This document shows, piece by piece, positions 3,180 through 21,806 of a DNA stretch of 23,122 nucleotides (its first letter is position 1; every line of letters begins with the position of its first letter). Made by a program: the position numbers and the translations under genes. The notes below the pieces were generated by a model that saw only the letters and a list, made by a program, of their open reading frames with translations, was not told the origin of the DNA and did no database searches. This DNA comes from a virus: IMG/VR virus record IMGVR_UViG_3300020726_000020, positions 1 to 23,122 of that record; one strand, given 5' to 3'.

Positions 3180-4898
3180 TTAAAGTGCAGGACCACCTGC
3201 ACCAATTGCACCTGCAGCACCCTGTGATCCTGGGCCACTTGCACCCGGTGCTCCCGGTTCTGCAACACCTGCATCGGGACCCAATGCTTCTATATCCGCA
3301 GCTACACCGCCTGGACTAAAACCGCCGCTACGTAAGCTAGGAGCATCAACTGCGGCCATCTCAGGATTGCCTTTTTCTTCTGCCCATGCTGTTTCGTTTT
3401 CACTAATCTCTTGTTCACTCATACCTAAATAACGCTTCATTAAAAAACGCTTACTTAAATAAGGTGTTTGTTCAAGCTGAGTAAAGTTAGTAATACGTGC
3501 TGCATCAATATCTGCTTGACGATATTGTGCAAAGTTTTGTGGTTCGTTGAATGATAAATCGAATAATGATCCATCAATGTTAAAACCTCTCCAACGCATA
3601 AACAGTTTAAACTCACTGTCCAACTTATCTGCAATCATCGATTGTAACCGTACACAATATTGATTAAAGCGCCATTCTTGAATAAGTGCTGTGCCCACAC
3701 GCCCATCAGTATATGCTGCTGTGCCATCTTCGGCAGTAGTAGGCAAATAGGAGCTAGGAATACGCAAACCGCGGAACAATTTGTTAGTAAAGAAGCGTAA
3801 ATCGGTGATTTCACCTAGGTTTTGACCGCCGGGGAACACGTCTACACTACTACCCCGCCCATCAGCTGTAACCGGGAAGAAATAGTCTTCGTTTTGTGAT
3901 AACGGATTATATGTAGCATCCATCATGTTGCTGTTGTTGCCTGTACCGGACTGTGTAGGAATACGACGTTGGTGAATTTCGTTTTTAATACGTTCAACGA
4001 ATGCCATTGCCATATGACTTGGCATGTTACCTACGTCAATTTTAAATACACGACGTTCCGGTGCACGTTGTACACGATAGATGATAATACTATCTTCTAA
4101 TAATTCTTTTTGTTTGAATACTTTAAAAATGTTTTCTAATACCGAGTTGCCAAATGGCCAATATACATCTAATCCTTCTGTTAAGCTAACGTGAACTACG
4201 TGCTCTGCATTAATCGCAGCCTCATTCATTGCTTTACTAAAGCGACTACCACCACCAAACGGTGCTTGCGGCTGTGTATATGCGCCGCTAGGACCACCCG
4301 TTTGCGGGTGATTCATGTAGGTATCTGTTGTAGCAACTGCTGTTACAGTTAAGTTTTGGAAGTTAGGGTTTAAGTCTTTAATTAAGTATTGCTCGGGCTT
4401 TTTACCTTCACCTTCGTTAACAATAACTTTAGTAACTTTAGACATTTCTGTCCACATTAGTTTAAAGTTTTCTGGATCACGAATGAATACTTGATCGCCG
4501 TACTTAAATGTGTTACGTACAATTTTAAAGATACGTTTGTTTAGTTCGTTTAGTGCCACCCATTGCTGTAACTGTTCGTTAATAATTTTAACTTCGTTAT
4601 CGCTAGGTTGTTCTTTAAATTTAATAGTAAATGCTGTGTGATTTTCTAAGTTCTTTTGACTACAGAACTCTGCCAGAATATCTAGTGCTGCATTAACTTC
4701 CGAGTCCATATCCATTTGCTCGTATTGGTTATACCGCTCAACACGATTTGGCTGTCCTGTATAAACTTCAGGAAGTTGACTTTGATAGTTACGGTATCCA
4801 GGATCGGCAATGCGGCCGCCTCCCAAAGGACTTACGTTACTAGGTAAATTTGATGTTTTAAAGTACTTGCGCCACGTACCGCGGGGTGTTTCAGCCAT
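3180..4898 (-). CDS. 20: Portal vertex protein gp20
   Basis: This 572-aa protein shows features of T4 gp20, the dodecameric portal through which DNA enters the head and to which the neck attaches. These include NQYEQMDMDSEVNAALDILA (about residues 57-76), FKYGDQVFIRDPE, an IIYRVQRAPERRVFKIDVGN segment, and RLQSMIADKLDSEFKLFMRW in the second half. It is somewhat longer than T4 gp20 (524 aa). The excess lies mainly in the last 60 residues, which are Gly/Ala/Pro-rich and end in collagen-like G-x-y triplets (GAPGASGPGSQGAAGAIGAG). The ATG overlaps the stop of the upstream homing endonuclease gene (TAATG), so its translation may be coupled to that gene. No frameshift is seen. Confidence 0.93.
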   Translation of the reverse strand: MAETPRGTWRKYFKTSNLPSNVSPLGGGRIADPGYRNYQSQLPEVYTGQPNRVERYNQYEQMDMDSEVNAALDILAEFCSQKNLENHTAFTIKFKEQPSDNEVKIINEQLQQWVALNELNKRIFKIVRNTFKYGDQVFIRDPENFKLMWTEMSKVTKVIVNEGEGKKPEQYLIKDLNPNFQNLTVTAVATTDTYMNHPQTGGPSGAYTQPQAPFGGGSRFSKAMNEAAINAEHVVHVSLTEGLDVYWPFGNSVLENIFKVFKQKELLEDSIIIYRVQRAPERRVFKIDVGNMPSHMAMAFVERIKNEIHQRRIPTQSGTGNNSNMMDATYNPLSQNEDYFFPVTADGRGSSVDVFPGGQNLGEITDLRFFTNKLFRGLRIPSSYLPTTAEDGTAAYTDGRVGTALIQEWRFNQYCVRLQSMIADKLDSEFKLFMRWRGFNIDGSLFDLSFNEPQNFAQYRQADIDAARITNFTQLEQTPYLSKRFLMKRYLGMSEQEISENETAWAEEKGNPEMAAVDAPSLRSGGFSPGGVAADIEALGPDAGVAEPGAPGASGPGSQGAAGAIGAGGPAL

Positions 4899-5380
4899 TA
4901 TGAATGTCCATTTTTACGACGGGTTTCCATCGTTTTTTCTAATCGTTTTTGTTTATACTCTGGGTCGGCCCAAAGATTTTTAACTGCATTTTTTATATTG
5001 TTAGCATGGCTATCTGTTTTAGGTTTTCTATATTTTTGTTTGTGTTCTTCGGTTCTAACTTTACCTAAATTGCCTTGTCTAATTTTTTCAACTGCTTCTT
5101 CGGAATGTTTCCAACCCGGTTCTGCTACCCATCTTGTTACTTTTTTGTTATCTAATATACCACCATGTTTTTTACAACCATAGAATTTAATTAATTCTGA
5201 TTCCATCTCGTATGCTGCTTTGTTAGTTAAACCGTCTTTAAGAATAATACGTCTATTTTCTGGTGGTACTTCAGTATATAAATGGTGTTCTCTAATCCGT
5301 GTTCCACTACCTTTACCAATGTAGTATGGTAACCCATCTTCAGTAATGTATTGATACGCGTAATAGTTGCAACCGGCCAT
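4898..5380 (-). CDS. Free-standing GIY-YIG homing endonuclease with NUMOD3-type region
   Basis: This 160-aa protein has an N-terminal GIY-YIG nuclease module: YYAYQYITEDGLPYYIGKG gives the paired GIY/YIG strands (residues about 6-24). Arg28 and Arg30 follow in TRIREHH, and a Glu-containing helix in AAYEMESELIKFYG carries the expected metal-binding Glu. The C-terminal half has WKHSEEAVEKIRQGNLGK and a second basic HKQKYRKPK segment, typical of NUMOD3 DNA-binding repeats in phage mobile endonucleases. Such enzymes cut a neighbouring locus in phages lacking the gene and spread by repair; they are not needed for virion assembly. It sits between the tape measure and portal genes, outside either coding sequence, and overlaps the portal ATG by 1 bp. 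A late-type promoter precedes it at 5402-5409. Confidence 0.85.
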   Translation of the reverse strand: MAGCNYYAYQYITEDGLPYYIGKGSGTRIREHHLYTEVPPENRRIILKDGLTNKAAYEMESELIKFYGCKKHGGILDNKKVTRWVAEPGWKHSEEAVEKIRQGNLGKVRTEEHKQKYRKPKTDSHANNIKNAVKNLWADPEYKQKRLEKTMETRRKNGHS

Positions 5381-9327: not shown

Positions 9328-9357
9328 TATTATGTATTACTTTGCGTGTTTCGTTTA

Positions 9358-9413
9358 AGACTTACTTGCGTAAGTCTATTGCTTTCGTTATCACTCAGCA
9401 ATGTTTTTCTTTT
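9358..9413 (+). terminator. Possible terminator hairpins for the late gp26/gp51-like transcript
   Basis: An 8-bp perfect hairpin (AGACTTAC / GTAAGTCT, 4-nt loop, 9358-9377) is followed at once by a 6-bp hairpin ATTGCT / AGCAAT (9378-9402). After that comes GTTTTTCTTTT. The order stem-then-T-run fits a Rho-independent terminator on the plus strand just after the 72-aa ORF. The second stem is AT-rich, so strength is doubtful. The same stems could instead belong to the minus-strand structured RNA. Confidence 0.35.
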
Positions 9414-9831
9414 ATTACATATTTAAATTACAACGAAGTTGATAGTTTCATGTAGATAAATCTGGTCAGACGGAACCATTTCACAGGTTCCATCCAGTCC
9501 GCTTCATGTGAGTATCACTAGCCGAGACATTGGAAATAGGTATTTTATTATACACTGAATGCTAATGGGCTCTAATCTTTCCCAACCTACATCGATCTCA
9601 CAGTATTGCTACTGCTACCTTAAACCTCGTTCCTAGTGTTTAAGTTTTTATAGCCAGTGTCTTTGTATGCTAACAATTCATACTATATCAATGCGTTGGG
9701 TGTATTGTTTTACCCTCAGACTCACTTCCGATTTTTCAGGATAGTGGGATAAACCCACGGGAGTGCCTCAATATGTTACGTGTCCGGTTATTCCCCGGTT
9801 TTTCCACAGCGGTATTACAACTGGCCCGCTA
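9358..9831 (-). ncRNA. Candidate structured non-coding RNA in a 507-bp gene-free region
   Basis: No credible ORF fills 9328-9834. The stretch is dense in inverted repeats and slightly richer in G+C than its neighbours (about 42% by hand count over 9481-9840). Stems include AGCGG/CCGCT (9809-9831), CCGG/CCGG (9784-9798), GTGGG/CCCAC (9744-9758), GTATG/CATAC (9664-9682), CTTAAAC/GTTTAAG (9619-9644), CAGTA/TACTG (9601-9614), CTGG plus GGAACC / GGTTCC plus CCAG (9462-9497), ATTGCT/AGCAAT (9378-9402) and AGACTTAC/GTAAGTCT (9358-9377). Read on the minus strand, the CAGTA and AGACTTAC stems are closed by GCAA, a GNRA tetraloop, which favours that strand. The RNA could be transcribed from the promoter before the 85-aa gene. 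I cannot match it to tRNA, tmRNA, RNase P or a group I/II intron core. Boundaries are approximate. Confidence 0.45.
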
Positions 9832-9834
9832 ACC

Positions 9835-10092
9835 TTATGTGTTAGTAAAATAATTCTTTGGTAACCACATTATAAATTTTCCGCTACATGTTTTACAAAC
9901 TGCCTTACCTACATGCGGCCCGGATTCTAATTTAACGGGTTCCCAATCGTGTGCTACATGCACACCTAAATTTTTATTTAAAGTGTTTTTCTTATCGTGC
10001 CATTGTTTATCAAACCCCTTTTTTGGATTACTCCAGTATTCGGTGTTTAATATACTAGTTTGTGGTTGGCGGTCCCATTTAAGTTTTGTCAT
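9835..10092 (-). CDS. 85-aa putative zinc-binding protein, function unknown
   Basis: The product is a small basic protein starting MTKLKWDRQPQTS. Its C-terminal half holds a probable metal site: His45, His48 and His60 precede Cys66-KT-Cys69 in GPHVGKAVCKTCSGKF, followed by the aromatic IMWLPKNYF tail. Only one CxxC is present, so a His/Cys zinc knuckle is more likely than a four-Cys ribbon. I do not recognise a function. It is the last protein gene of the long minus-strand run and lies directly before the structured gene-free region. A TAGACA-17-TAAAAT promoter precedes it with an 11-nt gap to the ATG and no Shine-Dalgarno. Confidence 0.7.
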   Translation of the reverse strand: MTKLKWDRQPQTSILNTEYWSNPKKGFDKQWHDKKNTLNKNLGVHVAHDWEPVKLESGPHVGKAVCKTCSGKFIMWLPKNYFTNT

Positions 10093-10137: not shown

Positions 10138-10923
10138 TTAAATCTTTTCCATTAAAGAATCTAGGAAATTTGTATAGTAGGAGTAGTTGGACTTTATGCC
10201 GGGGTGTACGTTGTCGTTGTTTGTATCTAATTTAGAATACAGCATTGAGTTATATAGGTTAAGCCAGTGCGACTCTTGTATAGTTCCTGCATCTGTGTAT
10301 TCTTTATGTATTTTATTATATAATTTAAAAATTTCTTCGTCGTTGCGATTGTCTGTATTAATTAATTTCTTAGTAAATTGTGTATAGTCACTTGGCATTG
10401 CATTTGTTAATTTGTTAAAATAATTCTCATCCCACGGACATAGTCCGTTTATAAAAAAGATCTTAGTTTTGTATAAACCTGCAACTTTTATTAGAACATT
10501 TACATATCTTACTAAATCTAGTATTTCGTGATGTAAATTTGCTAATGTTGTAAATCTATCTCTTATATTCTCTAAATACTTCTTAGAATAATTTATTTCG
10601 TTTGTATTAACATCAAATAATCCTGCATTTGGCATAAAAGTTACTTTAGTGCTATATAATTCTAATCCTAATTGCATTTCATATCTTGGTACACTAGACC
10701 ACTGTACAAACACATATTTGAAACTATTGTTTGTTAGTGCCTCCAATGTGCGATTAAATATTATAGCATTAGATCTGCCGGCTTCGCTAACATTAACTAA
10801 TTCGTAATCACGTAAAAAACTATTTTGATGCAGTAAATTAACCCAAAGTTCCGGTGCGTGTTCTTCTTGATCAAACCCAGTGCCTTGTGTATAACTACAC
10901 CCGGCAAATAATACTTTATTCAA
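10138..10923 (-). CDS. SGNH/GDSL-hydrolase-like protein
   Basis: This 261-aa protein begins MNKVLFAGCSYTQGTG, where GCSYTxG corresponds to the GDSL block I with the nucleophile at Ser10. A block with EAGRSN follows, and near the C-terminus comes DNVHPG with Asp237 and His240 in the D-x-x-H spacing of the catalytic pair. SGNH enzymes cleave or transfer acyl or other esters on lipids, sugars or glycans; the substrate here is unknown. No signal peptide is visible, so it probably acts in the cytoplasm. It starts with TTG overlapping the upstream stop as TTGA; no nearby ATG would preserve the catalytic block. It belongs to the run with the methyltransferase and radical-SAM genes and may be part of the same modification pathway (inference). 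Confidence 0.68.
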   Translation of the reverse strand: MNKVLFAGCSYTQGTGFDQEEHAPELWVNLLHQNSFLRDYELVNVSEAGRSNAIIFNRTLEALTNNSFKYVFVQWSSVPRYEMQLGLELYSTKVTFMPNAGLFDVNTNEINYSKKYLENIRDRFTTLANLHHEILDLVRYVNVLIKVAGLYKTKIFFINGLCPWDENYFNKLTNAMPSDYTQFTKKLINTDNRNDEEIFKLYNKIHKEYTDAGTIQESHWLNLYNSMLYSKLDTNNDNVHPGIKSNYSYYTNFLDSLMEKI

Positions 10924-11348
10924 ATCTTGCCCTTAATGTGACTACCATGCACACGTACTTGTATGTGCCCGTTATAATAATCATCGCTTTCTAATACTCT
11001 GCGACTAAACTGTTCTCTTGCTTCTATATAACTGCACTCCGATTTACTCCGGCAATAGTAAAGTATTTCTCTACTAAAGTTTTCAACGCCTAATGCAACT
11101 ACATCTTTTGTTAATTCTGGACTGGAACCATAATACTCTTGCCAATCACTATCAATTTTGCTACGGATCTTCTTTTTCTTCTTAGTGCCGTTCTTGAGCT
11201 TAACTACTTTATACGCTGTTTTACTGAATTTTGCGAGCTTTTTACCAATATATTTTCTTCCAGAAAGTTTATTTGTAATTAAATAAACAAATCCGACGCA
11301 ATCTTCGGGAAGAGATTCTACTAGAGTGTTTTCAAAAAGCCATGACAT
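10920..11348 (-). CDS. GIY-YIG nuclease-like protein
   Basis: This 142-aa protein has a GIY-YIG module from about residue 19: GFVYLITNKLSGRKYIGKK supplies the paired motif (VYL...KYIGKK). A Glu-containing helix, ECSYIEAREQFSRRVL, carries the probable catalytic Glu. A very basic insert (KNGTKKKKKIRSKID) lies between them, and the C-terminus ends YNGHIQVRVHGSHIKGKI. There is no NUMOD repeat, unlike the other GIY-YIG gene in this window, so it may be a phage nuclease with a dedicated role rather than a typical homing enzyme. It overlaps the SGNH-like gene as TTGA and begins at ATG 11348. Function beyond nuclease fold is not clear. Confidence 0.75.
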   Translation of the reverse strand: MSWLFENTLVESLPEDCVGFVYLITNKLSGRKYIGKKLAKFSKTAYKVVKLKNGTKKKKKIRSKIDSDWQEYYGSSPELTKDVVALGVENFSREILYYCRSKSECSYIEAREQFSRRVLESDDYYNGHIQVRVHGSHIKGKI

Positions 11349-11363
11349 GCATAGTAGTTATCA

Positions 11364-12176
11364 TCATTTGCCTGTATCTGTATTTTTTAATACATAGAAG
11401 TTTTTCTTCCCAGCGGTTCTCGGTGGCGACTCACCATGCCCAATAAAATCGTGATAATCGTAATAAAATAATACTTCCCACCCATGATATTTTAGTACAG
11501 AATTTAGCGCATTACGAGAAGGCATCAACCCACTTGTGTATTCTTCCCCGGTATTAGTAAATGATTGTATATTTTTAGTATTAGTTGATGCTTTCCAAAA
11601 TTCAAAATGCCCATCATCACAATAATCATCTATAACTGAACTTTCAAAAAATAAAAACTTTGGTTTCACTTTTTGCTTTATAAATGCTAGTACATCGATG
11701 CCGTTGTTTAAATAGTACATTACATCCAGGAAAAATACAACATCATACGGTTCGTTATTATATTGTTGCATGTACTCGTTTAACGACATTTTAGTATTTG
11801 TAACAATGCCGGATAGGTTTCTTAATTTGATATACTCATCACCGAGACTTTTTCGAGTTGTGTCTGGCTCAACACAGTCTGCATGACTAGCACCATTTAA
11901 TATAGCCCATACGCTCCAGAAATTAAGATTTGATCCTAGATCTAAAATCTTAGCATCTTTAAGTAAATTCTGATGTAACACATAATAACAATAGTACCTG
12001 GCTAACCAGCATTCGGGATAACTCCACACAGTATGAGAGTCTGGTGTAAATTCGGCACCGGGGTTATCAAACAGTTTATGAAAAATGTATTCAATATATT
12101 GGCTATCATTGAGTGTACTTTTTAACTCAGCAAGTTTATTAAAGTCCATTTTTGCCGACGGCATACTGTTGTACAT
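11364..12176 (-). CDS. Class I SAM-dependent methyltransferase
   Basis: The 270-aa product has the Rossmann methyltransferase motifs in order. These are ILDLGSN (motif I, residues 77-83), an acidic DCVEPD at 100-105 that would bind the ribose hydroxyls, and a YDVVFFLDVMYYLNNG motif IV segment. No DPPY/NPPY motif is present, so a DNA adenine or N4-cytosine methylase is unlikely. The best fit is a small-molecule, sugar, protein or RNA methyltransferase of the broad Methyltransf_11/23-like group. The N-terminal helical region (about 60 residues) and the C-terminal tail with HGESPPRTAGKKNFYVL are not recognised. It lies between a radical-SAM gene and a GIY-YIG gene with 15-22 bp gaps. The start is ATG 12176; ATGs at codons 5 and 10 are possible alternatives. 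Confidence 0.78.
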   Translation of the reverse strand: MYNSMPSAKMDFNKLAELKSTLNDSQYIEYIFHKLFDNPGAEFTPDSHTVWSYPECWLARYYCYYVLHQNLLKDAKILDLGSNLNFWSVWAILNGASHADCVEPDTTRKSLGDEYIKLRNLSGIVTNTKMSLNEYMQQYNNEPYDVVFFLDVMYYLNNGIDVLAFIKQKVKPKFLFFESSVIDDYCDDGHFEFWKASTNTKNIQSFTNTGEEYTSGLMPSRNALNSVLKYHGWEVLFYYDYHDFIGHGESPPRTAGKKNFYVLKNTDTGK

Positions 12177-12198
12177 AGTAGTAATAATTATCCCCTAG

Positions 12199-13203
12199 TT
12201 ACCAAGTTGTTGCATAGTCTTGATTTACTACGGCTTTTGTACATTTAGTATTGCACTCTTGCCAGCGGAATTGTTTAAACTCTGTTATCCAGAATGGATC
12301 GGCTATTACTTCTGTTAATGTTCTGTTGTTCAAATTGAATCGTTCTGCTAATTGTTGCCATTCGTTGTTATGACTGTATCTGTTGGCTACCCAACAGCAA
12401 GGGAATAGTCTGCCTCGAGCATCAATATACAATCCTTTATTGCCAATTTCGCACAAGGGTATGATTGTCGGATTGTCTTTAACTTGATTATACAATGTAA
12501 TATTAATAGGATGTATGTTGCTAACATTATTATTAAAACGGGTAGTATCGCGCTCGAATCGGTGCGTATTACTTACGTACCTATCGCTGGGTTGTAGAGG
12601 ATCTATAGTTCCATAATTGGGATATATCTTTCCAAACTTAGTGCTACGTGTTAATTGAAAAGCATCCATTCCTAATTTGTTTGCTAAAGATTGCATATAA
12701 TCTATATGATCTTCGTTAAACTTAAACGCTATAGCGGCCCATACTAAACGACACTTACTAGTGGCTCTTAACACCTCAATGCCTTGAATAATAGATACGA
12801 AATCGCTGTTTACCCTATACAAATTGTTACTTGCATTATCATATCCATCCACGCTAAAGTGTACGGTATCTGCTTCTGTAAGTACATTACCTAATGCTGT
12901 CCAATAATCCGGTTTCTTATGACTACCGTTTGTGATAATAACAATCTCAACAGGTTTAATACTTTTAATATATTCAATTACGGCGATTAAATCGTGTGCA
13001 TATATAGGATCCCCGTCGTCGCCGCAGAATGTAATCTTTTCTAAATTAGCAAGAATAAATTCTTCTGTAAAATTTCTTTTAAAAAACTCTAAGGCTAACT
13101 CTGTGTTAATTAAACTATCAGGAACTTCTTGTCGGGCGCAACGAGGGCACCGTAAGGTACACTTGCTACTAATCTCAATATGAAAATGCCAGGTAGCTAA
13201 CAT
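12199..13203 (-). CDS. Radical SAM protein with C-terminal SPASM/twitch-type cluster
   Basis: The 334-aa product has the radical-SAM CxxxCxxC at Cys15, Cys19 and Cys22 (SSKCTLRCPRC). A GDDGDP motif near residue 61 stands where the SAM-binding GGE motif normally lies, and an IITNGS strand follows. The C-terminus has further cysteines: Cys251, the FPCCW pair Cys269/Cys270, and Cys317/Cys321. This arrangement fits a SPASM or twitch auxiliary [4Fe-4S] domain. Enzymes of this type modify peptides, proteins or sugars (for example sactipeptide, PQQ or anaerobic sulfatase maturation), but the substrate cannot be read from the sequence. The start is ATG 13203, 2 bp after the stop of the oxygenase-like gene. 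Confidence 0.85.
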   Translation of the reverse strand: MLATWHFHIEISSKCTLRCPRCARQEVPDSLINTELALEFFKRNFTEEFILANLEKITFCGDDGDPIYAHDLIAVIEYIKSIKPVEIVIITNGSHKKPDYWTALGNVLTEADTVHFSVDGYDNASNNLYRVNSDFVSIIQGIEVLRATSKCRLVWAAIAFKFNEDHIDYMQSLANKLGMDAFQLTRSTKFGKIYPNYGTIDPLQPSDRYVSNTHRFERDTTRFNNNVSNIHPINITLYNQVKDNPTIIPLCEIGNKGLYIDARGRLFPCCWVANRYSHNNEWQQLAERFNLNNRTLTEVIADPFWITEFKQFRWQECNTKCTKAVVNQDYATTW

Positions 13204-13205
13204 AG

Positions 13206-13838
13206 TTATTCTAAGTCTACTAGAACCTGTAAAAACTTCTTAGGACCAATTTGTCTAACGTGAAAATTGTCACTGCTATGGAATAAGTTACGTTTAAAAA
13301 ACAATGTACTACCCGCCTTCCAATTCTGTCCTACATATTTTAAACTTAAATACTCTCGATCCTCGTCCCAACAATGCGATAGATTATCGTTCCAAAAATT
13401 TAAATCTATGGGATGACTGCATTTTTCATTTAATTCTTTATATTTGTAAAAATCGTTATAATCGGGTGCTGTTTGATCAAATATTATTGTGCGGCTTTCG
13501 TAGCTTTCTAATGGAATAATAAATGTATACCAAGTTGATGATCCTTTTAAAGGGCGACTAGATTCGCTATGTATATCCCACGGCAAGCATAACTCTACAT
13601 AGTCAACTTCTACAACTTTGATATTTTCTCCTAATACTTGATTCATACGCTCTTTAAGTAATAGTCCCAACTCGTCATTGTTGTTCCATGTATGCCATCT
13701 TTGTGTAGCAATAAGTTCCCCGGGGAAACGGCCGTAGTCAGGACGAAAATCAACTCGTTCCCAATCTTTTACGATGTTAGCAATTTCATTGAGCTCTGCG
13801 GAACTAACCCAATCCGGAATTTCAAATATATCTTTCAT
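13206..13838 (-). CDS. 2-oxoglutarate/Fe(II) oxygenase-like protein
   Basis: This 210-aa protein has the outline of a small 2OG-Fe(II) dioxygenase of the double-stranded beta-helix type. WDIHSES supplies a possible HxE metal pair (His90, Glu92). KAGSTLFFKRNLFHSS gives the distal His187, and Arg195 eight residues later could bind 2-oxoglutarate. The Glu in place of the commoner Asp is an accepted variant. Related phage and bacterial proteins hydroxylate prolyl, aspartyl or other side chains, or small molecules, and the substrate here is unknown. It sits between two radical-SAM genes with 2-bp gaps on both sides, so co-translation is nearly certain. The assignment is by motif only; another cupin-fold protein is possible. 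Confidence 0.6.
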   Translation of the reverse strand: MKDIFEIPDWVSSAELNEIANIVKDWERVDFRPDYGRFPGELIATQRWHTWNNNDELGLLLKERMNQVLGENIKVVEVDYVELCLPWDIHSESSRPLKGSSTWYTFIIPLESYESRTIIFDQTAPDYNDFYKYKELNEKCSHPIDLNFWNDNLSHCWDEDREYLSLKYVGQNWKAGSTLFFKRNLFHSSDNFHVRQIGPKKFLQVLVDLE

Positions 13839-13840
13839 TA

Positions 13841-15334
13841 TTATCTTTTTTCTAATAGTATAACAGGTTTCGCAGAATATTCAATCAAATTTGATTGTTC
13901 GGCTAATTTTTTAAGTACTAGTAACTCTTCACGAACTCTTGGCATCGGATAGCCCAACTCGACACAAAGTTCATGTATTTCGATACGTCTACGTATTCTT
14001 TCTTTGAGAGTATTACTGGGGTTTAGTGCAGAAGTCCAACTGTAGACACTATCAAATTTAATATTGTCACTAATATTTATTTGCAAATCGTGTACCATAT
14101 CCATAATTGGGGTATGGTCGTACAAGTGCATGGTAAATCCCCAGCGCATCATGAATATCGTTCCCATATCTGAATATTTTTTATATTTTTTTATAGCATC
14201 GATATTGTCTTGATGATCTTGTGCTGTTTCGGTTGGGTATCCCACAATCATTAAGAATACGTTTGGAATACCCCACAGCGCACATTGTTCTAAGTGATAA
14301 TCAATGTCGGCATTTGAAAACTTCTTACGCATATGAGTACGAACATTGTTACTAAAACTCTCAATGCCAGTTGTTAACATAGTACATCCGGCTAACCGCA
14401 TAAGCTCATAGCTACGTGCTGGCTGTTGCGTAGATGGTCTACAAATAAATTGTCCTTGATATCTAATAGGTTCTAACTCGGGATTTTTTAATTTTTCCTC
14501 GTACAACAATTCGTTGAATCGATCAAAGTTACTAATGCTTCCGTTTATTAAACTATCAGTAAATTCAAAATTGGTAATTCCGTAGTCATAAAAATGTTTT
14601 TTAATCTCTGCAACAATACTCTCTGCACTACGATATCTAAACTTTGGCCACGTTAATGCTATATCGCAGAATGTGCAGTTACGTACACATCCCCGACTGC
14701 CCGTAATTAATACCCGGTTGCCCTGATATCTATCCATATCAAAAAATTCATATGTTGGCACAGGTAAGCTAGATAGATCTTCAATTTGTATAGGATTGTT
14801 TTGATTAATCCCGGGATACTTACTGTTACCGTTGAGTAATTCGCGAAACGTTATTTCGCCTTCTCCGTATATTACAAAATTGGCTAACTTGTGTTCTAAA
14901 ATGTAATTACCGAAGATTTGCTTATTCCCAACACTGGTATCAGTTGATACGCCCGTTCCGCCAACTACACTAGTGATTGTAAAGGATTCTTTATACCATG
15001 CAAGTACTTTGGTTGCAATACGATTACTAAAATAACTAAACACACTGAAGCAAACAAAATCAGTTTGGGCATTAATTTTAGAATTAAGACCATTTTTAAA
15101 AATCTTTTTTAATTTATTTTCAAGTTTTATATCTATATGATCGCTGGAAAATGCATTCCAAGATTCAAGCTGTTGCCATTCTTTAGAACTAAGTCCATCA
15201 AATAAATCTAAATTGTAATCAAAAATTGTAACATTGTAATTGCTTTCTTTAGCTACACTGGAAAGTATTGCTAATGCGCCGGGCGGATATGCAAGCTCAA
15301 CTTTGGGTAACGATATAATAACAAGATTTTTCAT
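13841..15334 (-). CDS. B12-binding-type radical SAM protein
   Basis: The 497-aa product starts with a Rossmann-like domain typical of cobalamin-dependent radical-SAM enzymes. This has VIISLPKVELAYPPGALAIL (residues 5-24, including YPPG), a VVGGTGVS loop at 123-130 and IYGEGEITFREL near 155-166. No clear DxHxxG is seen, so cobalamin may bind base-off without a lower His ligand, as in many of this class, or not at all. The catalytic core has SRGCVRNCTFC with Cys216, Cys220 and Cys223. Family members catalyse methylations, ring formation or other radical steps on peptides, lipids, tetrapyrroles or tRNA (MiaB/RimO-like relatives have different domain order). The ATG overlaps the previous stop as TAATG. 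It is flanked by the oxygenase-like gene and a 137-aa unknown. Confidence 0.85.
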   Translation of the reverse strand: MKNLVIISLPKVELAYPPGALAILSSVAKESNYNVTIFDYNLDLFDGLSSKEWQQLESWNAFSSDHIDIKLENKLKKIFKNGLNSKINAQTDFVCFSVFSYFSNRIATKVLAWYKESFTITSVVGGTGVSTDTSVGNKQIFGNYILEHKLANFVIYGEGEITFRELLNGNSKYPGINQNNPIQIEDLSSLPVPTYEFFDMDRYQGNRVLITGSRGCVRNCTFCDIALTWPKFRYRSAESIVAEIKKHFYDYGITNFEFTDSLINGSISNFDRFNELLYEEKLKNPELEPIRYQGQFICRPSTQQPARSYELMRLAGCTMLTTGIESFSNNVRTHMRKKFSNADIDYHLEQCALWGIPNVFLMIVGYPTETAQDHQDNIDAIKKYKKYSDMGTIFMMRWGFTMHLYDHTPIMDMVHDLQINISDNIKFDSVYSWTSALNPSNTLKERIRRRIEIHELCVELGYPMPRVREELLVLKKLAEQSNLIEYSAKPVILLEKR

Positions 15335-15747
15335 TATGAAAGTATTTTTTTAATTTCCTTGACAATCTTAGGGTATCCGTTATTAATACCAACATATAGA
15401 TCAAAGAAATGCTTACTCTGCCGTTGCTTTTCAGACAAACTATTAATACGCCCTTGTATATTCTTATTTTTATATTCGTTAAAAAAATTATCAGTCACAC
15501 TCATTGTTAATTTATGATCTTGTAATAAAATATCGGCTAACCAGTAATCTAGCATAAAATCATTATACCTGACACTAGGCTTAATTTTAAAAGGCCAAAA
15601 CTCTACATCAATTTGTACAGGAAATTCGTTAGAGAAACTAACTTTAAGGGAAGTGCAATCTATATCGTGTGCCACAAGTTGTTGATTAATGTAAATTTTA
15701 ACATTATCAAATTTTTTATCTTGCAACAACACCTCTATAGAGTTCAT
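15334..15747 (-). CDS. 137-aa protein of unknown function coupled to gp46
   Basis: I do not recognise this protein. It begins MNSIEVLLQDKKFDNVKIYI. The first two thirds alternate hydrophobic and charged residues in a likely beta-sandwich (VSFSNEFPVQIDVEFWPFKI). The last third is a Lys-rich helix pair. One cysteine only, no signal peptide, no membrane segment. Its ATG overlaps the gp46 stop as ATGA, and its stop overlaps the next ATG as TAATG, so it links the recombination gene to the radical-SAM genes in one translational unit. It may be a partner or substrate-binding protein of the adjacent radical-SAM enzyme, but that is only positional inference. Confidence 0.65.
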   Translation of the reverse strand: MNSIEVLLQDKKFDNVKIYINQQLVAHDIDCTSLKVSFSNEFPVQIDVEFWPFKIKPSVRYNDFMLDYWLADILLQDHKLTMSVTDNFFNEYKNKNIQGRINSLSEKQRQSKHFFDLYVGINNGYPKIVKEIKKILS

Positions 15748-17513
15748 ACAATGTCTACATCCGTATTATAACTTGTAAACCCGTTTTCTTTAACTACGTG
15801 AAGTGTATTATTAACACGACCTGCTAGTTCATCTTTGTGCGACACTAACCAAATACTCTTGTTAGCTTCGCGACTCATCTTTTTAAGAATAGCCAAAGAG
15901 TTTTCAACCCCCGAACTATCCATACCGCTGTCTACTAACTCATCGATGAATAACAAGTTAATGGGTTGATATAAACTTTCCCACACATCACGAAATGCCC
16001 ATGACAAACTTAAAATAAGTCTATTGCGTTCGCCACGTGATAAGTTATCGAAGTCTAAATCTCTACCTAGCTCAGTAATGGCTACAGTTAAATCGTTGTT
16101 AAACTTAACTGTGTGTGGTAAGCCAATACGATCTAGGTATTGTCCCAAGCGGGCGTTTAAATAACTTAAATTTTGATCAATGATACGTTTACGAATAAAT
16201 GAATCTTTGTTTGTTAATAGCTTTAGCAAGAACTCTTGATGATCTTTAACGTTTGTAAGTTCGTTGATTGTATCATAACTAACTTCTTCTAATGCGGTTT
16301 CCTGCATTTCTGCAATTTGTTCTGTATATGGGTCTGATTCTGCTACCTTGGCAGTTAGTTGCTTGATTAAGTTGTCTACAGTTGCTTGATGATGGATAGC
16401 ATCGGCTTCCTTATCGTAGAACATTATTGGCCGTGGACCGAGTTTGCCCAGCCCAAGCTCAGCCGACTGTAATTCAGCCAAAGTGGCAGCATAAGATTCC
16501 GCGGAGTCGCGAGCCACTGATAGTTCTCCCTGCTTCTGTCCCATAACCTGTTGGTGCTTTTCGTCGTGGAACTCTTGGCCGCAAGTGGAGCACGTATGAT
16601 TTTCCAGCGAATCAATATCTGCTGATATCTTGCTAACACTTTTTTCTTCCCGCGAAAGGTCCAATTTGGTGCGACTAATCGCCGACGATAGTTCATTGAG
16701 ATCCTTTCTAAGTTGATCCCATGTCTTGAACGCTTGGTGTGCCTGAATCTCGGCCTTGATGTCGATCTTCTGAAGCTCTTCGATCGCATCGTGTGTCTTG
16801 TTAATCTCATCATCGTGCTTGTTGTTCCACATTGTTTGTCTACGCTTCAATGCTTCAATTTGCTCTTGAATGCGGACGTTAGCATCAGTAACAGCTTTAA
16901 TACGAAACTCTTCTGCGGTAATAGCGTCTTTAGTTGCTTTACCTTGTTCTTTTAATTTGTCTGCTTTTTCTGATAGTAATGTAATACCAAGTAACTGTTC
17001 AATGATAGCACGTTGATCGTTTGCACGTAAGGCTAAGAATGGTTCAGTATACGTGTTTAACGCTACAATATGCTTAAACATGTCATGCGACATACCTAGC
17101 ATACGTTCTATTTCTGCTTGGGTTTCTCTGCTATCGCCCTGGGCATCGTCGGTAATTTCTTTTTCTTGATCTCCTACCCAAAAGCGCATGCCTGTGGGCT
17201 TACGTCCACGCTCAATGCGATAATGCTCACCGTCTTTTTCAAAATCAATAGTAACCATCATATTCTTTTGATTAGTTTTATTAATTAAGTTATCTTTCTT
17301 AATGTTAGTAAGTGCGTTACCGTATAAGGCATAGCTCAGAGCATTAATAATAGTAGTCTTTCCCGTACCGTTTCTCGCACCAGAATCGTCACCGCCTAAG
17401 TCTAAGTTTTCACCTAATACTAGCGTTAAATCTTGTCGATCAAAGTTAACAGCCTGGGTAGTATTACCCACGCTCATAAAGTTTTTAACGGTTAGAGTTT
17501 TTATTTTAAACAT
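15744..17513 (-). CDS. 46: Recombination endonuclease subunit gp46 (Rad50/SbcC-like ATPase)
   Basis: The 589-aa protein is a Rad50-type ATPase. It has Walker A GARNGTGKTT (residues 45-54), a first coiled-coil arm and a zinc-hook CSTC near residues 307-310. A second arm follows, then the ABC signature LSRGERNRLILSLSW (about 488-502) and Walker B LLFIDELVDSG (about 516-526). T4 gp46 (560 aa) pairs with gp47 to process DNA ends for recombination-dependent replication and host DNA breakdown. Unlike T4, a radical-SAM gene separates it from gp47. A strong sigma70-like promoter (TTGACT-17-TATATT) lies immediately before the ATG, so the mRNA may be nearly leaderless. Its stop overlaps the start of the 137-aa ORF. 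Confidence 0.95.
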   Translation of the reverse strand: MFKIKTLTVKNFMSVGNTTQAVNFDRQDLTLVLGENLDLGGDDSGARNGTGKTTIINALSYALYGNALTNIKKDNLINKTNQKNMMVTIDFEKDGEHYRIERGRKPTGMRFWVGDQEKEITDDAQGDSRETQAEIERMLGMSHDMFKHIVALNTYTEPFLALRANDQRAIIEQLLGITLLSEKADKLKEQGKATKDAITAEEFRIKAVTDANVRIQEQIEALKRRQTMWNNKHDDEINKTHDAIEELQKIDIKAEIQAHQAFKTWDQLRKDLNELSSAISRTKLDLSREEKSVSKISADIDSLENHTCSTCGQEFHDEKHQQVMGQKQGELSVARDSAESYAATLAELQSAELGLGKLGPRPIMFYDKEADAIHHQATVDNLIKQLTAKVAESDPYTEQIAEMQETALEEVSYDTINELTNVKDHQEFLLKLLTNKDSFIRKRIIDQNLSYLNARLGQYLDRIGLPHTVKFNNDLTVAITELGRDLDFDNLSRGERNRLILSLSWAFRDVWESLYQPINLLFIDELVDSGMDSSGVENSLAILKKMSREANKSIWLVSHKDELAGRVNNTLHVVKENGFTSYNTDVDIV

Positions 17514-17519
17514 TAAATT

Positions 17520-17548
17520 AATATACTAGATTTAGTTGTAAAAGTCAA
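17520..17548 (-). promoter_or_regulatory. Sigma70-like promoter TTGACT-17 bp-TATATT for gp46
   Basis: On the minus strand the -35 TTGACT (17543-17548) and -10 TATATT (17520-17525) are 17 bp apart, each 5 of 6 consensus. The -35 contains the TGA stop of the upstream radical-SAM gene. Only 6 bp separate the -10 from the gp46 ATG, so transcription should begin at or next to the start codon. The element closely resembles that before gp47. Confidence 0.6.
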
Positions 17549-19116
17549 TATTCCATTGCCCGGGATATTTCGGGATATAATGCAGAAAAACTCTCATCCC
17601 TGATGGAATCAAGATTTTTCATATAATTGCAAAAATCGTCGCTACTATAAGGTTTAGCTGATTTTAAAATGTTAATAATATTACTAATAAACATCGATAC
17701 TGTAGGATCAATTGAATGATATGTGGATAGCTTTTCTAAAACTAACCTGTTTGCGCTACTAGTAAGATGCGAAATATTTAAGTATTCTGGAAGGTACAGG
17801 GTACTAAAATGAAAGCTATCAAATTTCTGTGCGATTATCCAATTACATATTTCTGGTAGGTAGTACACGTTTTGAATATTAACTGCCAAATGTAGTGCTA
17901 TTTTAATAACACTACAGTCTAATGCTAAAAATTGTTTTATATTTGAGTTGACTATATCCCATGCAACTCCTGGACGTTCGTACTCGAATCGTTTTCCTAT
18001 ATTATCGACGCTAATGGCAATTTCAACATTTTTAAATTGTTGTAGTAAACTTATATATTTTTCTGGGAAGACAGTACCGTTAGTATTATAATGTATACTA
18101 ATATCTTTAGCCCGATTTAGTGCAACAAGCTGTTCTAGAATTTGAAAGTGCCTAATTGACAGCATAGGTTCGCCACCAGCTAAATCAAAATGTACAATAT
18201 TTGATTTTAGATCTAGTATTGAATTCCAAATTTTGGCATTGTCATCTTTAATCCAATTACCGGCCGACATCAATTGATACACTGGGTGTGATTTTTTATC
18301 TTTAACATTTGAATTATTGATTAATTCTGTAGCGAATAGGCTACTATTATCTGGACTACATATTCTACATTTTAAATTACATACATTACCAAATGCAACA
18401 CTTGCAAATACTAGGTTCGCAATATTATCTTGTTCCCAGTTTGAATTATATGATTCGGGCACAATGCGATGTTTAAGTAATTGTCTTTTACTTTCAGTGC
18501 CGTCGCGTTCCTCGTTCCAGCATCTGGCGCACGGCTCGGGCTTGCTTCCATGTCTAAAGTCTTCTCTAAGTTTTTGCATATAATCGCTGTTATATACGTC
18601 ATCAAACGTATCAACTTGAGCATGAAACGGAGTCCCGTTGTTTTTAGTTATTACTTTATTATAAAAGCAACATGGACGAAATTCCCCGTTAGTAGTAACA
18701 TCTAACGATATCCATGGTTGCGTACAGATAGATTCGGGCGGATTAAGAATCACATTACTAGTCTTATCATAGTTAATCACAGGAGTATCTACTAATTTGA
18801 ATGCAATAGGATCTTCTTCGTTTGAATATAGTTGTGTTGCAGTTGCAAGTATTTGTTTTATTGCAGGATTATTTGATAAAAATATAACAAAAAAGTTTGG
18901 AATATCAATAAAAGATAAACTTTTCTGCAGACTATACGCAAAATCTTCGATTTGTTTTATTTCAAGATTTTCAAAACAAGAGAATATTATTCTATAATCA
19001 TTTGGAAATGATTCCTGCTTGAGGCTGTATAGCTCACGATGTAATGTTGCAGATGGTTTCTCTAAATATTCTACAACAGTACGTACACGATCAAATTGAA
19101 AGTGATCTAAGTTCAT
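17545..19116 (-). CDS. Radical SAM protein with N-terminal twitch-type cysteine cluster
   Basis: The 523-aa product has an N-terminal region of about 125 residues that I do not recognise. Next is a cysteine cluster, Cys131, the PCC pair Cys149/Cys150, and CARC at 196-199, resembling the auxiliary-cluster (twitch/SPASM) fold placed before the core. The radical-SAM motif NVCNLKCRIC gives Cys246, Cys250 and Cys253. GGEP is at 314-317, and IHYNTNG and EIAISVDN mark further barrel strands. Such twitch-domain radical-SAM proteins occur in marine phages with unknown substrates. The gene is inserted between gp47 and gp46: its ATG overlaps the gp47 stop as ATGA and its TGA forms part of the gp46 -35 box. 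It is co-transcribed with gp47 while leaving the gp46 promoter intact. Confidence 0.85.
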   Translation of the reverse strand: MNLDHFQFDRVRTVVEYLEKPSATLHRELYSLKQESFPNDYRIIFSCFENLEIKQIEDFAYSLQKSLSFIDIPNFFVIFLSNNPAIKQILATATQLYSNEEDPIAFKLVDTPVINYDKTSNVILNPPESICTQPWISLDVTTNGEFRPCCFYNKVITKNNGTPFHAQVDTFDDVYNSDYMQKLREDFRHGSKPEPCARCWNEERDGTESKRQLLKHRIVPESYNSNWEQDNIANLVFASVAFGNVCNLKCRICSPDNSSLFATELINNSNVKDKKSHPVYQLMSAGNWIKDDNAKIWNSILDLKSNIVHFDLAGGEPMLSIRHFQILEQLVALNRAKDISIHYNTNGTVFPEKYISLLQQFKNVEIAISVDNIGKRFEYERPGVAWDIVNSNIKQFLALDCSVIKIALHLAVNIQNVYYLPEICNWIIAQKFDSFHFSTLYLPEYLNISHLTSSANRLVLEKLSTYHSIDPTVSMFISNIINILKSAKPYSSDDFCNYMKNLDSIRDESFSALYPEISRAMEY

Positions 19117-20135: not shown

Positions 20136-20164
20136 ATTTTACTACATTATTGCTACAAAGTCAA
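20136..20164 (-). promoter_or_regulatory. Sigma70-like promoter TTGACT-17 bp-TAAAAT for gp47
   Basis: On the minus strand the -35 TTGACT (20159-20164) and -10 TAAAAT (20136-20141) are 17 bp apart. The -35 contains the TGA of the upstream SGNH-like gene, and the ATG follows the -10 after 6 bp. Layout and many bases match the gp46 promoter. Confidence 0.6.
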
Positions 20165-20910
20165 TGCTGGTTTGTTGCGATTTTTTCCAATAAATATCTC
20201 CCAAATTCACGATGTGCTTCTTTGCCCGGGTGCCCAGTTAATCCATATTTAACTTGATCTTTTGGTAAATGCCCGTTGTTTAATGCAAAGTCTGCAAAAC
20301 TAAAATTCCATAAATCGATGATTGAATTTTTTGTATTAGCATATTCGTTAAAGTTGGCAAGAAATGGTGCAGTTACATCAACTTCCGGAAGTGATGGGAG
20401 TTTTTGACAATTACAAAAAATTAAAATTTGCGAATTAATTGATTCAGCAAATGAATTAAGCATAATAACATCGGTTATCAAGTTAGTGACTTCTGCTTCT
20501 TTAGAAAAGTGTAATAGCCAGTATTTGTAATAGTCTTTTATTTCGGAATCCGCATACTCGTGAACATTAGGGCGGTGGGTGTTGATTAATCCGCCAGACC
20601 AATCTAGATTCTGTATACCGGCATTAGTAATTGGATGAAAATCACCATCATTGCCGACTGGGGGTAAATGTGGTTGCCATAATTCAGTCCTGCTAATAAA
20701 CGATAAACCCACTAACGCCAATAACGGCCCACTATGAGTTTTTCGAATATCAATCAATGATCTAATAGAACTACGTATTATACGCCGATTGCACGAAGCC
20801 GGAGTACCATCATTTACTAATTTAGCTGCTAACTCCTGTGCAACAACTTCAGGATAAATTGTATGTCCCTGTGGTGCACCAAAGCTACATGAGTTTGAAT
20901 AAACAATCAA
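20161..20910 (-). CDS. SGNH-hydrolase-like protein, second copy, divergent active site
   Basis: The 249-aa product starts MIVYSNSCSFGAPQG, where SCSFG matches block I (GCSxxxG) with Ser9 as the possible nucleophile. Near the C-terminus GLTGHPGKEAH holds the block V His227 followed by Pro-Gly, but the Asp usually three residues before the His is replaced by Leu224 (GLTGH). It may use another acid or be inactive. The two SGNH-like proteins of this window share little beyond these blocks, so they are not recent duplicates. It starts with TTG overlapping the gp55 stop as TTGA; no in-frame ATG exists near the start. Its own TGA is part of the gp47 -35 box. Substrate unknown. Confidence 0.55.
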   Translation of the reverse strand: MIVYSNSCSFGAPQGHTIYPEVVAQELAAKLVNDGTPASCNRRIIRSSIRSLIDIRKTHSGPLLALVGLSFISRTELWQPHLPPVGNDGDFHPITNAGIQNLDWSGGLINTHRPNVHEYADSEIKDYYKYWLLHFSKEAEVTNLITDVIMLNSFAESINSQILIFCNCQKLPSLPEVDVTAPFLANFNEYANTKNSIIDLWNFSFADFALNNGHLPKDQVKYGLTGHPGKEAHREFGRYLLEKIATNQH

Positions 20911-21806
20911 TCGTCATATCCACCATCGCTGCCGCCTGTTGTAGAACTAATTTTTTGTCCCTGGCGTGTATAGGACGGGGTTAAATTATTCATTTCTAAA
21001 ATATCATCACGTAAATTTTGATTACGCTTTTCGATATTCAACACCCGTGTAAATGAGTTAGTGATAGCGGCTGTGTAGTATGCAAATGGATTCTGCGATT
21101 TAAACTCATCAAATTGCAACCCAATTTGACTTAACTGTAATAATGCTTGGCTACGCATTTCGTCATTATATGTATAACCACGCCAATTGGAACGGGTAGC
21201 ATAACGTTCGCATAATTTAATAAACATATGAGCTAACTTTGGCGTCATTTTACCATGCTCGCGACTAAATGATCCTTTGATTAAATCACCTTTCCAGTGA
21301 CTACGTCCTACTAACACAGGGTCTCCCTCTTCGGTTACTTGAAAGTGTTCAAATGGTGGAAAGTTTACTTTAACGTACTTAGTATTACCGGCAATGTCTA
21401 ATTCGTCATCATCGTACTCAGATCTAGCCGGGCCTTCATCTTCGAGCTCCATTGCTTTAACAGCAGCTTTACGTGATTTAACATCATCAACTGGAATATG
21501 ATCCCATGTCATTACACGGAATACAACAGCAGTATCGGGAATATCTTTGAGCTTGATTTCAAATTCATCCATTTTACGCTTAATTGCGCCTTCTTGAGCA
21601 TGATGAGCATCATACGCAATTTTAGCTAAACGGACAGCACGATCTTTTCGTGCTTGCATTATGTTCTTTTTATTGATTTTTTTAACGTCCGGCAGAATCA
21701 TATCATAATCTGTAACTTCGGGACTTGAATAATAGCAATATGTATTCTTGCTTTTATGTATTTCTTTTAAAATATCTTTATTATTTAGATAATTGTGGCG
21801 TGCCAT
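20907..21806 (-). CDS. 55: RNA polymerase sigma factor for late transcription, gp55-like
   Basis: The conserved part lies in the C-terminal half: THMFIKLCERYATRSNWRGY-type sequence (here LAHMFIKLCERYATRSNWRG), then YNDEMRSQALLQL, KSQNPFAYYTAAITNSFTRV and LNIEKRNQNLRDDILE. This corresponds to sigma region 2 as found in T4 gp55, which directs host core polymerase to TATAAATA promoters with the sliding clamp. At 299 aa it is longer than T4 gp55 (185 aa). The extra N-terminal part begins with a Lys-rich segment and includes an acidic stretch (LEDEGPARSEYDDDELD). Several TATAAATA-like sites in this window are likely its targets. It is the first gene of the minus-strand early/middle run, with AAAGGA before the ATG. 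Confidence 0.88.
   Translation of the reverse strand: MARHNYLNNKDILKEIHKSKNTYCYYSSPEVTDYDMILPDVKKINKKNIMQARKDRAVRLAKIAYDAHHAQEGAIKRKMDEFEIKLKDIPDTAVVFRVMTWDHIPVDDVKSRKAAVKAMELEDEGPARSEYDDDELDIAGNTKYVKVNFPPFEHFQVTEEGDPVLVGRSHWKGDLIKGSFSREHGKMTPKLAHMFIKLCERYATRSNWRGYTYNDEMRSQALLQLSQIGLQFDEFKSQNPFAYYTAAITNSFTRVLNIEKRNQNLRDDILEMNNLTPSYTRQGQKISSTTGGSDGGYDD

What the first reader, a model, noticed from the sequence alone, without database searches (positions are those of the whole stretch)
10138..19116. A multi-enzyme modification cassette with three radical-SAM proteins built into the recombination operon
Seen: three proteins with CxxxCxxC (two with extra SPASM/twitch-like cysteines, one with a B12-type N-terminus), a methyltransferase, a possible 2OG oxygenase, an SGNH hydrolase and a 137-aa unknown. 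All are on one strand, mostly with overlaps or gaps of 2-22 bp. Known: such enzymes co-occur in pathways that tailor peptides, glycans, lipids or RNA. Inferred: they act together on one substrate during infection. I found no precursor peptide in the short intergenic gaps, so the target may be a host or phage macromolecule or the cell surface.
Basis: partly seen in the sequence, partly recalled or inferred. Interest (0 to 1): 0.85.

Follow-up and report, generated by a model that had tools for sequence, protein, structure and literature searches.

The report
Swappable radical-SAM island in uncultured phages
Large uncultured T4-like phages carry, beside two DNA-recombination genes, a slot where chemistry enzymes (mostly iron-sulphur 'radical SAM' enzymes) are swapped in and out like cassettes; one three-gene set in it, including a small unknown protein that is always paired with a vitamin-B12-type enzyme, looks like a real working unit, probably tailoring a surface or virion molecule.

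Summary
Window 10138-19116 encodes two SPASM/twitch-type radical-SAM (rSAM) proteins, one rSAM with a B12-binding-type fold, a 2OG-oxygenase-like protein, a methyltransferase, an SGNH-like protein and a 137-aa protein (u137). All lie on one strand, woven around gp47-gp46 and a SegE-type GIY-YIG gene, with intact motifs and purifying selection. The interpretation (one pathway, one substrate) holds only in part. Comparison with ~230 phage loci shows two exchange slots, gp47|gp46 and gp46|SegE, whose contents change gene by gene between phages with 90%-identical gp46. The window cassette is a chimera: u137-B12rSAM-OG comes from one lineage, rSAM_B-SegE from another, and MT and SGNH1 are single insertions. 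Only u137+B12rSAM behaves as an obligate pair: adjacent in 22/22 loci found with u137 as query, overlapping ORFs, tree correlation 0.89 against 0.42 with gp46. OG usually joins them. Outside the window, the same lineage carries a fixed array of five more rSAM genes (45/47 complete loci; >500 viral contigs), next to glycogenin-like and carbamoyltransferase genes. Best reading: a swappable tailoring island, most likely acting on a sugar-containing surface or virion polymer. The substrate is inferred, not shown.

The parts
20907..21806 (-). gp55-type late sigma factor (backbone)
   Evidence: phrog_12791 5.6e-79
20161..20910 (-). SGNH2: SGNH-like accessory gene between gp55 and gp47
   Evidence: no family hit; relatives at 43-50% lie between gp47 and gp46 in L143, L146, L153, L158
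19113..20129 (-). gp47 (SbcD-like), left boundary of slot A
   Evidence: phrog_100 5.7e-61
17545..19116 (-). rSAM_A: N-twitch radical-SAM protein, the slot A insert; starts on the TATGA stop/start overlap of gp47
   Evidence: NF033640 3.2e-94; best relatives, 39%, are member r7 of the lineage's five-rSAM array; junctions
15744..17513 (-). gp46 (SbcC-like), separates the two slots
   Evidence: phrog_77 1.2e-108
15334..15747 (-). u137: small beta-sandwich protein, obligate neighbour of B12rSAM
   Evidence: AlphaFold2 pLDDT 89; 22/22 adjacent; mirror-tree r=0.89
13841..15334 (-). B12rSAM: radical-SAM enzyme with B12-binding-type Rossmann N-terminus
13206..13838 (-). OG: 2OG-Fe(II)-oxygenase-like protein, usual third member of the unit
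   Evidence: HxD/E...H in 26/26; 10 of 12 loci of an OG-first scan hold B12rSAM
12199..13203 (-). rSAM_B: radical-SAM/SPASM-like protein, independently exchanged
   Evidence: 79% to L090 but 45% to L002/L003
11364..12176 (-). MT: class-I methyltransferase, single insertion between rSAM_B and SegE
   Evidence: absent from L090; no relatives in fetched loci
10920..11348 (-). SegE-type GIY-YIG protein, right boundary of slot B
   Evidence: PF19835 2.6e-32; conserved leader GATAACTA..CCATG in divergent loci
10138..10923 (-). SGNH1: SGNH-like gene inserted after SegE
   Evidence: the empty site in L090 reads straight through; the insert is flanked by 7-bp direct repeats AAGATTT

Best explanation
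This is an exchangeable tailoring island, not one fixed pathway. Two slots flanking gp46 of a large, uncultured, PA5oct-related ('far-T4') phage lineage collect single genes and small modules of tailoring enzymes. Modules are swapped between co-infecting phages by recombination in the conserved gp47, gp46 and SegE flanks. In this window the main functional module is u137-B12rSAM-OG. The radical-SAM enzyme with a B12-type fold activates a C-H bond (most likely C-methylation, or an AprD4-like dehydration). u137 is its dedicated non-catalytic partner and docks the enzyme on, or presents, the substrate. OG oxidises the product. rSAM_A, rSAM_B, MT and the SGNH proteins add further steps on the same class of substrate. 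The most likely target is a sugar-containing polymer of the cell surface or virion (LPS, capsule or glycosylated fibre), changed to block superinfection or host receptors or defences. Shown: slots, exchange, intact enzymes, u137-B12rSAM coupling. Inferred: reaction, substrate and benefit.
For: Slots and rotation. Slot-specific families: B12rSAM 0 in slot A / 34 in slot B, u137 0/24, amidinotransferase 6/0, GT-like 7/0. Cultured relatives have gp47 and gp46 adjacent (Ettore, XaC1) and a resolvase instead of the cassette. Chimera and gene-precise junctions. Obligate pair. OG link. B12-type fold. Glycan leaning: the same contigs carry AGAT/SxtG/StrB1-type amidinotransferases, glycogenin-like GT-A proteins and NodU/TobZ-type carbamoyltransferases beside a five-rSAM array; slots also hold a sulfotransferase, an aminotransferase-like family, SDRs and methyltransferases. 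No thymidylate-synthase homologue in 10/12 long contigs.
Against: No substrate is known. The window genes themselves include no glycosyltransferase. The u137 fold has no significant structural match; its weak resemblance to CBM36/60 (E 0.06) is not evidence. Cobalamin use is not shown: AprD4 has the same fold and, as I recall, does not need cobalamin. The five-rSAM array is not shown in the window's own phage, which is a fragment. In the Bdellovibrionia chromosomal relatives the neighbour is an NF033640 protein rather than u137, next to cell-division and protease genes, not glycan genes.
Confidence: 0.45

Rival explanations
1. One fixed pathway: all seven enzymes act in sequence on one substrate.
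For: Compact same-strand order; all active sites intact; some loci keep u137-B12rSAM-OG-rSAM_B together (L002, L003, L014).
Against: Gene-by-gene presence and absence against L090; different nearest relatives for trio and rSAM_B; MT without relatives; SGNH genes in different slots; rSAM_B-type mostly without B12rSAM in the gp46-first sample.
Confidence: 0.08
2. Protein or peptide modification: rSAM/SPASM, B12rSAM and OG modify a phage or host protein (for example a fibre), and u137 is the substrate or carrier, as in a RiPP-like system without a small precursor.
For: rSAM_A and rSAM_B resemble peptide/protein maturases (SPASM); MgmA, a close fold match, methylates a protein; u137 is small and tied to the enzyme; small beta-proteins F37/F41 occupy the same place beside other B12rSAMs, an rSAM or PLP-like enzymes; the five-rSAM array follows fibre-like genes in some contigs.
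Against: u137's conserved positions are structural types (F, P, R, L, A, H, Y, D, G) with no conserved Cys or Ser/Thr cluster; no precursor peptide; glycan-type enzymes dominate the linked genes.
Confidence: 0.25
3. Nucleic-acid modification protecting phage DNA or altering RNA.
For: Genes interleave with DNA-recombination genes; the B12-type fold is shared with MiaB-type enzymes; some phages hypermodify DNA with rSAM or PLP enzymes (own knowledge).
Against: No dUMP/dCMP-hydroxymethylase-type gene in 10/12 long contigs; the gp46 link is a positional slot in the late structural region, filled also by sulfotransferase, SGNH and transporter-receptor genes.
Confidence: 0.1
4. Unrelated auxiliary metabolic genes gathered by a permissive insertion site, each changing host small-molecule metabolism.
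For: Single insertions such as MT; TctC transporter receptor and sulfotransferase in some slots; empty slots in 22/74 loci.
Against: Strict slot preference of families, SDR always with an rSAM (14/14), u137-B12rSAM co-inheritance.
Confidence: 0.12

Closest known systems
Hypervariable or 'host recognition' islands of T4-like marine phages (pelagimyophages, PMC7029224; cyanomyophages)
   Same: T4-like backbone interrupted at fixed places by islands with glycosyltransferases, LPS-type and other tailoring genes; rSAM proteins reported in marine pelagimyophages
   Different: Here the slots flank gp46; rSAM enzymes dominate; families are slot-specific; a two-protein u137-B12rSAM unit exists
B12-binding-type radical SAM enzymes TsrM, MgmA, CysS, OxsB, AprD4
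   Same: Full-length fold and CxxxCxxC
   Different: 14-20% identity to all; cobalamin motif only partly recognisable (conserved D39-N41 and G125-G126); fixed partner u137; phage-encoded
NF033640 twitch-domain radical SAM proteins
   Same: rSAM_A scores far above the curated cut-off
   Different: Family has no known function that I could find; this copy sits between gp47 and gp46
Pseudomonas phages PA5oct/Ettore (Wroclawvirus), Sinorhizobium phage Phosso, Xanthomonas phage XaC1
   Same: Same backbone gp55-gp47-gp46-hub-TMP-portal; gp46 and portal about 50% identical to the window for Ettore and Phosso, 36% for XaC1 gp46
   Different: No rSAM cassette in the region; a junction resolvase or endonuclease VII lies between gp46 and hub

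Membership tests
Radical SAM superfamily (B12rSAM, rSAM_A, rSAM_B) | CxxxCxxC [4Fe-4S]/SAM motif in a radical-SAM domain | tested here: met
B12-binding radical SAM class | N-terminal Rossmann-type B12-binding domain before the rSAM barrel | tested here: met
   AF2 model and Foldseek to TsrM/MgmA/CysS/OxsB; TIGR04072 7.8e-23 over residues 108-477, below its cut-off
B12-binding radical SAM class | actual cobalamin binding or dependence | not testable with these tools
   same fold is found in AprD4, which I recall as cobalamin-independent
NF033640 twitch-domain rSAM (rSAM_A) | score above curated cut-off (170 bits) | tested here: met
   316 bits
Radical SAM/SPASM maturases (rSAM_B) | C-terminal SPASM cluster domain above family cut-off | tested here: inconclusive
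   Pfam SPASM 20.4 bits against 21.5; C251, C269, C317 and C321 conserved
2OG-Fe(II) oxygenases (OG) | HxD/E...H metal triad | tested here: met
   26/26 homologues
2OG-Fe(II) oxygenases (OG) | double-stranded beta-helix fold or family score above cut-off | tested here: inconclusive
   PhyH 14.2 bits against 22; structure not predicted
SGNH hydrolases (SGNH1, SGNH2) | profile match to an SGNH/GDSL family | tested here: not met
   no SGNH/GDSL hit in Pfam, NCBIfam or PHROGs for SGNH1 and none in NCBIfam/PHROGs for SGNH2; motifs G-C-S-x-T/F and D-x-x-HP seen by eye only
RiPP biosynthetic cluster | precursor peptide next to the maturase | tested here: not met
   gaps in the run are -4 to +31 nt; u137 is a folded 137-aa protein
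Prokaryotic viperins (pVip) | score above curated cut-off | tested here: not met
   33 and 26 bits against 180; PADLOC hits look like generic rSAM similarity
Hydroxymethyl-pyrimidine-based DNA hypermodification | thymidylate-synthase-like hydroxymethylase in the phage | tested here: not met
   absent from 10/12 long related contigs; the window phage itself is a fragment

The most novel reading that the evidence does not exclude
A whole lineage of uncultured phages runs a phage-encoded radical-SAM chemistry programme: a fixed five-rSAM array plus slot-swapped accessory rSAMs. In it a two-protein enzyme (B12-type rSAM with the beta-sandwich partner u137) carries out a so far undescribed C-H modification on a surface or virion polymer, and phages diversify the product by exchanging modules at gp46.
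Probability: 0.3. Interest if true: 0.85.

Novelty: new variant of a known kind. Interest (0 to 1): 0.6.

Why it matters
Radical-SAM enzymes are oxygen-sensitive, costly enzymes, normally a sign of specialised biosynthesis. A phage lineage in which 10 of 12 long contigs have at least six matches to one rSAM family model, with modules swapped at a fixed genomic slot, implies strong and changing selection on some chemical feature of infected cells or virions. It gives two directly testable objects: an obligate enzyme-partner pair (u137-B12rSAM) for biochemistry, and a conserved five-rSAM array found in more than 500 viral contigs that I could not find described in the open literature held here. 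It also shows how single genes are exchanged at start/stop-codon precision between phages.

Tried and rejected
Fold of u137: AlphaFold2 gave a confident beta-sandwich with C-terminal helices, but Foldseek against PDB and BFVD gave nothing significant, so no function was taken from it. Rosetta-stone idea (C-terminal extension of the second B12rSAM in L002 equals the u137 or F41 domain): not supported by hhalign. u137 homologous to F37/F41/F56: not supported by sequence, though F41 is related to F37 and to F56. F9 of pelagic phages as a u137 homologue: rejected; it is an Asp/Asn-beta-hydroxylase-like protein. DNA hypermodification: no hydroxymethylase in most contigs. Viperin-like antiviral role: scores far below cut-off. 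Close relatives of B12rSAM in cultured phages: none; of rSAM_A: only ~23% matches in Vibrio jumbo phages and one single-cell virus. Cellular source: GTDB hits of the phage type lie mostly on short contigs that look like misbinned phage; the Bdellovibrionia chromosomal copies are only ~35% identical. Promoters/terminators: scan at background level; no T4-type late promoter in the cassette. A too-diverse u137 alignment could not be scanned; two narrower ones were used instead. A conserved leader before SegE was first noted as a repeat in the window, but the pattern alone is at chance; only its conservation across loci counts.
Full report
WHAT IS THERE. The window is a 23.1-kb fragment of a virus record. 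It belongs to a far-T4 myovirus: prohead protease, portal, baseplate hub, gp46, gp47 and gp55 are recognised by PHROG models. The closest cultured phages are Pseudomonas Wroclawvirus (PA5oct, Ettore, Paride) and Sinorhizobium phage Phosso, at about 50% identity in gp46 and portal. The right part of the window is also present, essentially identical, in record IMGVR_UViG_3300002933_000040. The run also contains gp46 and a SegE-type GIY-YIG gene.

ACTIVE SITES AND SELECTION. CxxxCxxC is present in 140 of 142 B12rSAM relatives and 156 of 158 SPASM-type relatives, and HxD/E...H in 26 of 26 OG relatives. dN/dS values that could be computed are 0.04-0.15. B12rSAM was modelled with pLDDT 88.6 and pTM 0.87. 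It matches TsrM, MgmA, AprD4, CysS and OxsB over its whole length at 14-20% identity. So the 'B12-type N-terminus' is real as a fold. Cobalamin use is not shown.

WHERE THE CASSETTE SITS. In cultured relatives the order is gp55-gp47-gp46-(junction resolvase or endonuclease VII)-hub-TMP-portal. In Ettore and XaC1 gp47 and gp46 are adjacent; Phosso has two small genes between them. None of these regions holds an rSAM gene. In the uncultured lineage two slots are filled: slot A between gp47 and gp46, slot B between gp46 and SegE. In a sample collected with gp46 as query, so not chosen for the cassette (best 80 of more than 590), slot B is complete in 74 loci. It is empty in 22, holds an rSAM in 39 and two or more rSAMs in 17. 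Slot A is filled in 42 of 70. All but one of 192 slot genes point the same way. Families prefer one slot: B12rSAM 0 in A and 34 in B, u137 0/24, OG 0/9, PLP-like F49 0/6, rSAM_B-type 3/49; amidinotransferase 6/0, GT-like pair 7/0, NF033640-type 10/0 (this tally includes the B12rSAM-selected loci, which inflates the B12rSAM and u137 numbers).

THE WINDOW CASSETTE IS A CHIMERA. Nearest relatives differ by gene. gp55, gp47, gp46, rSAM_B and SegE are 79-94% identical to L090. u137, B12rSAM and OG are 67, 81 and 71% identical to L002/L003, whose gp46 is only about 70% identical and whose rSAM_B is 45% identical. L090 lacks u137, B12rSAM, OG, MT and SGNH1 and has an SGNH-like gene instead of rSAM_A. 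Junctions lie at start and stop codons: rSAM_A begins in the TATGA overlap at the end of gp47, and gp46 homology ends at its last codons. SGNH1 is a ~780-bp insert after SegE with the empty site in L090 and 7-bp direct repeats AAGATTT at both ends. A SegE leader (GATAACTA..CCATG) is conserved whatever gene precedes it. Exchange is therefore shown by comparison. That SegE itself promotes it is only a possibility.

WHICH GENES BELONG TOGETHER. u137 and B12rSAM are adjacent with overlapping ORFs (1-37 nt) in 30 of 30 fetched loci. Scans made with u137 as query find B12rSAM directly downstream in 22 of 22 loci, including contigs where the pair lies away from gp46. Distances in u137 and B12rSAM correlate at 0.89, against 0.42 with gp46 for either; the partial correlation given gp46 is 0.87, with no permutation reaching it. 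An OG-first scan finds B12rSAM in the same slot in 10 of 12 loci, against 8 of 74 in the gp46-first sample. Other B12rSAMs have a different small beta-protein (F37/F41/F56) in the equivalent place; F41 is related to F37 and to F56, not detectably to u137. rSAM_B-type enzymes mostly occur without B12rSAM but pair with an SDR (14 of 14 SDRs). MT has no relatives in any locus.

THE WIDER LINEAGE. All 12 long related contigs carry NF033640-type rSAM proteins, with 2-15 matches to that model each and at least six in 10 of 12. Ten of them (L202-L211) carry a block of five rSAM paralogues r0-r4-r7-r3-r5 (one lacks r7), preceded by genes weakly related to glycogenin (E 2e-4) and followed by an unknown gene and, in most, a carbamoyltransferase (PF02543/PF16861; distant NodU match). 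A scan with r3 gives at least 531 viral contigs. Among 47 complete loci, 45 have five or more rSAMs, 32 in exactly that order, and all 47 have the carbamoyltransferase; 405 of 405 rSAMs keep CxxxCxxC. rSAM_A of the window is closest to r7 (39%). Only three cultured or single-cell records show a weak (~25%) match to r3. Whether the window's own phage has the array is unknown, because the record is a fragment.

MECHANISM. Shown: slots, gene-precise exchange, intact enzymes, u137-B12rSAM coupling with OG as frequent third member. Inferred: B12rSAM does radical C-H chemistry (methylation as in TsrM, MgmA and CysS, or dehydration as in AprD4), u137 docks or presents the substrate, and OG oxidises the product. 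The substrate class is inferred from company: amidinotransferase related to AGAT/SxtG/StrB1, carbamoyltransferase, glycogenin-like proteins, sulfotransferase, SDRs, methyltransferases and aminotransferase-like proteins point to sugars or a sugar-containing polymer more than to nucleic acids (no hydroxymethylase in 10/12 contigs). A protein target remains a serious rival, because MgmA modifies a protein and u137 could be the substrate.

CELLULAR RELATIVES. In Bdellovibrionia chromosomes two B12rSAM relatives (~35%) and an NF033640 protein follow ftsE-ftsX-envC-ctpA (the cell-division gene names are my reading of the sequences). This supports a functional link between the two rSAM classes outside phages but gives no substrate.

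NOVELTY. Islands of tailoring genes in T4-like phages are known (pelagimyophage and cyanophage hypervariable regions, PMC7029224), so this is a new variant of a known kind. New here, as far as the tools and the open literature searched show, are the gp46 slots dominated by rSAM enzymes, the obligate u137-B12rSAM unit and the lineage-wide five-rSAM array.

LIMITS. Samples are capped at 80 loci per scan, so frequencies are for the sample. B12rSAM-selected loci are biased for co-occurrence, so coupling claims rest on the u137-first, OG-first and gp46-first scans. ORFs outside the window were called by a simple longest-ORF rule. SGNH and some GT labels rest on motifs or weak matches.

Noticed in passing
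window 9328-9840, minus strand: A ~500-nt non-coding element between SegE and the hub genes: folds better than shuffles (z -2.6), no Rfam match, conserved in patches in L019, L020, L150, L151, L155, L157 and L228; 20 of 53 predicted pairs show compensatory changes. Candidate unnamed structured phage RNA.
   Followed up: partly
L246-L325, L202-L212: Fixed five-radical-SAM array r0-r4-r7-r3-r5 with glycogenin-like and carbamoyltransferase genes, more than 500 viral contigs, no close cultured relative. Deserves its own study.
   Followed up: partly
L059 8987-10618 (minus) and the same place in L060, L063, L068-L079, L082, L085: In pelagic phages an Asp/Asn-hydroxylase-like gene plus B12rSAM pair is followed by a ~540-aa ORF with a TonB-receptor plug domain (PF07715, 2e-18) that reads like BtuB: a possible phage-encoded B12 receptor beside a B12-type enzyme.
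   Followed up: no
L012 11008-14087, L116 2307-4841, L159, L163: PLP_F49 + F37 + PLP_F49 module in slot B: two weakly aminotransferase-like proteins around a small beta-protein.
   Followed up: no
L114 3261-4187: TctC-type transporter receptor with apparent signal peptide in slot A: a host transport gene in the same hotspot.
   Followed up: no
window 4898-5380: Second GIY-YIG-like gene between the portal and tape-measure genes.
   Followed up: no
L170 2422-10615: Bdellovibrionia chromosome: ftsE-ftsX-envC-ctpA followed by two B12rSAM and one NF033640 rSAM.
   Followed up: partly
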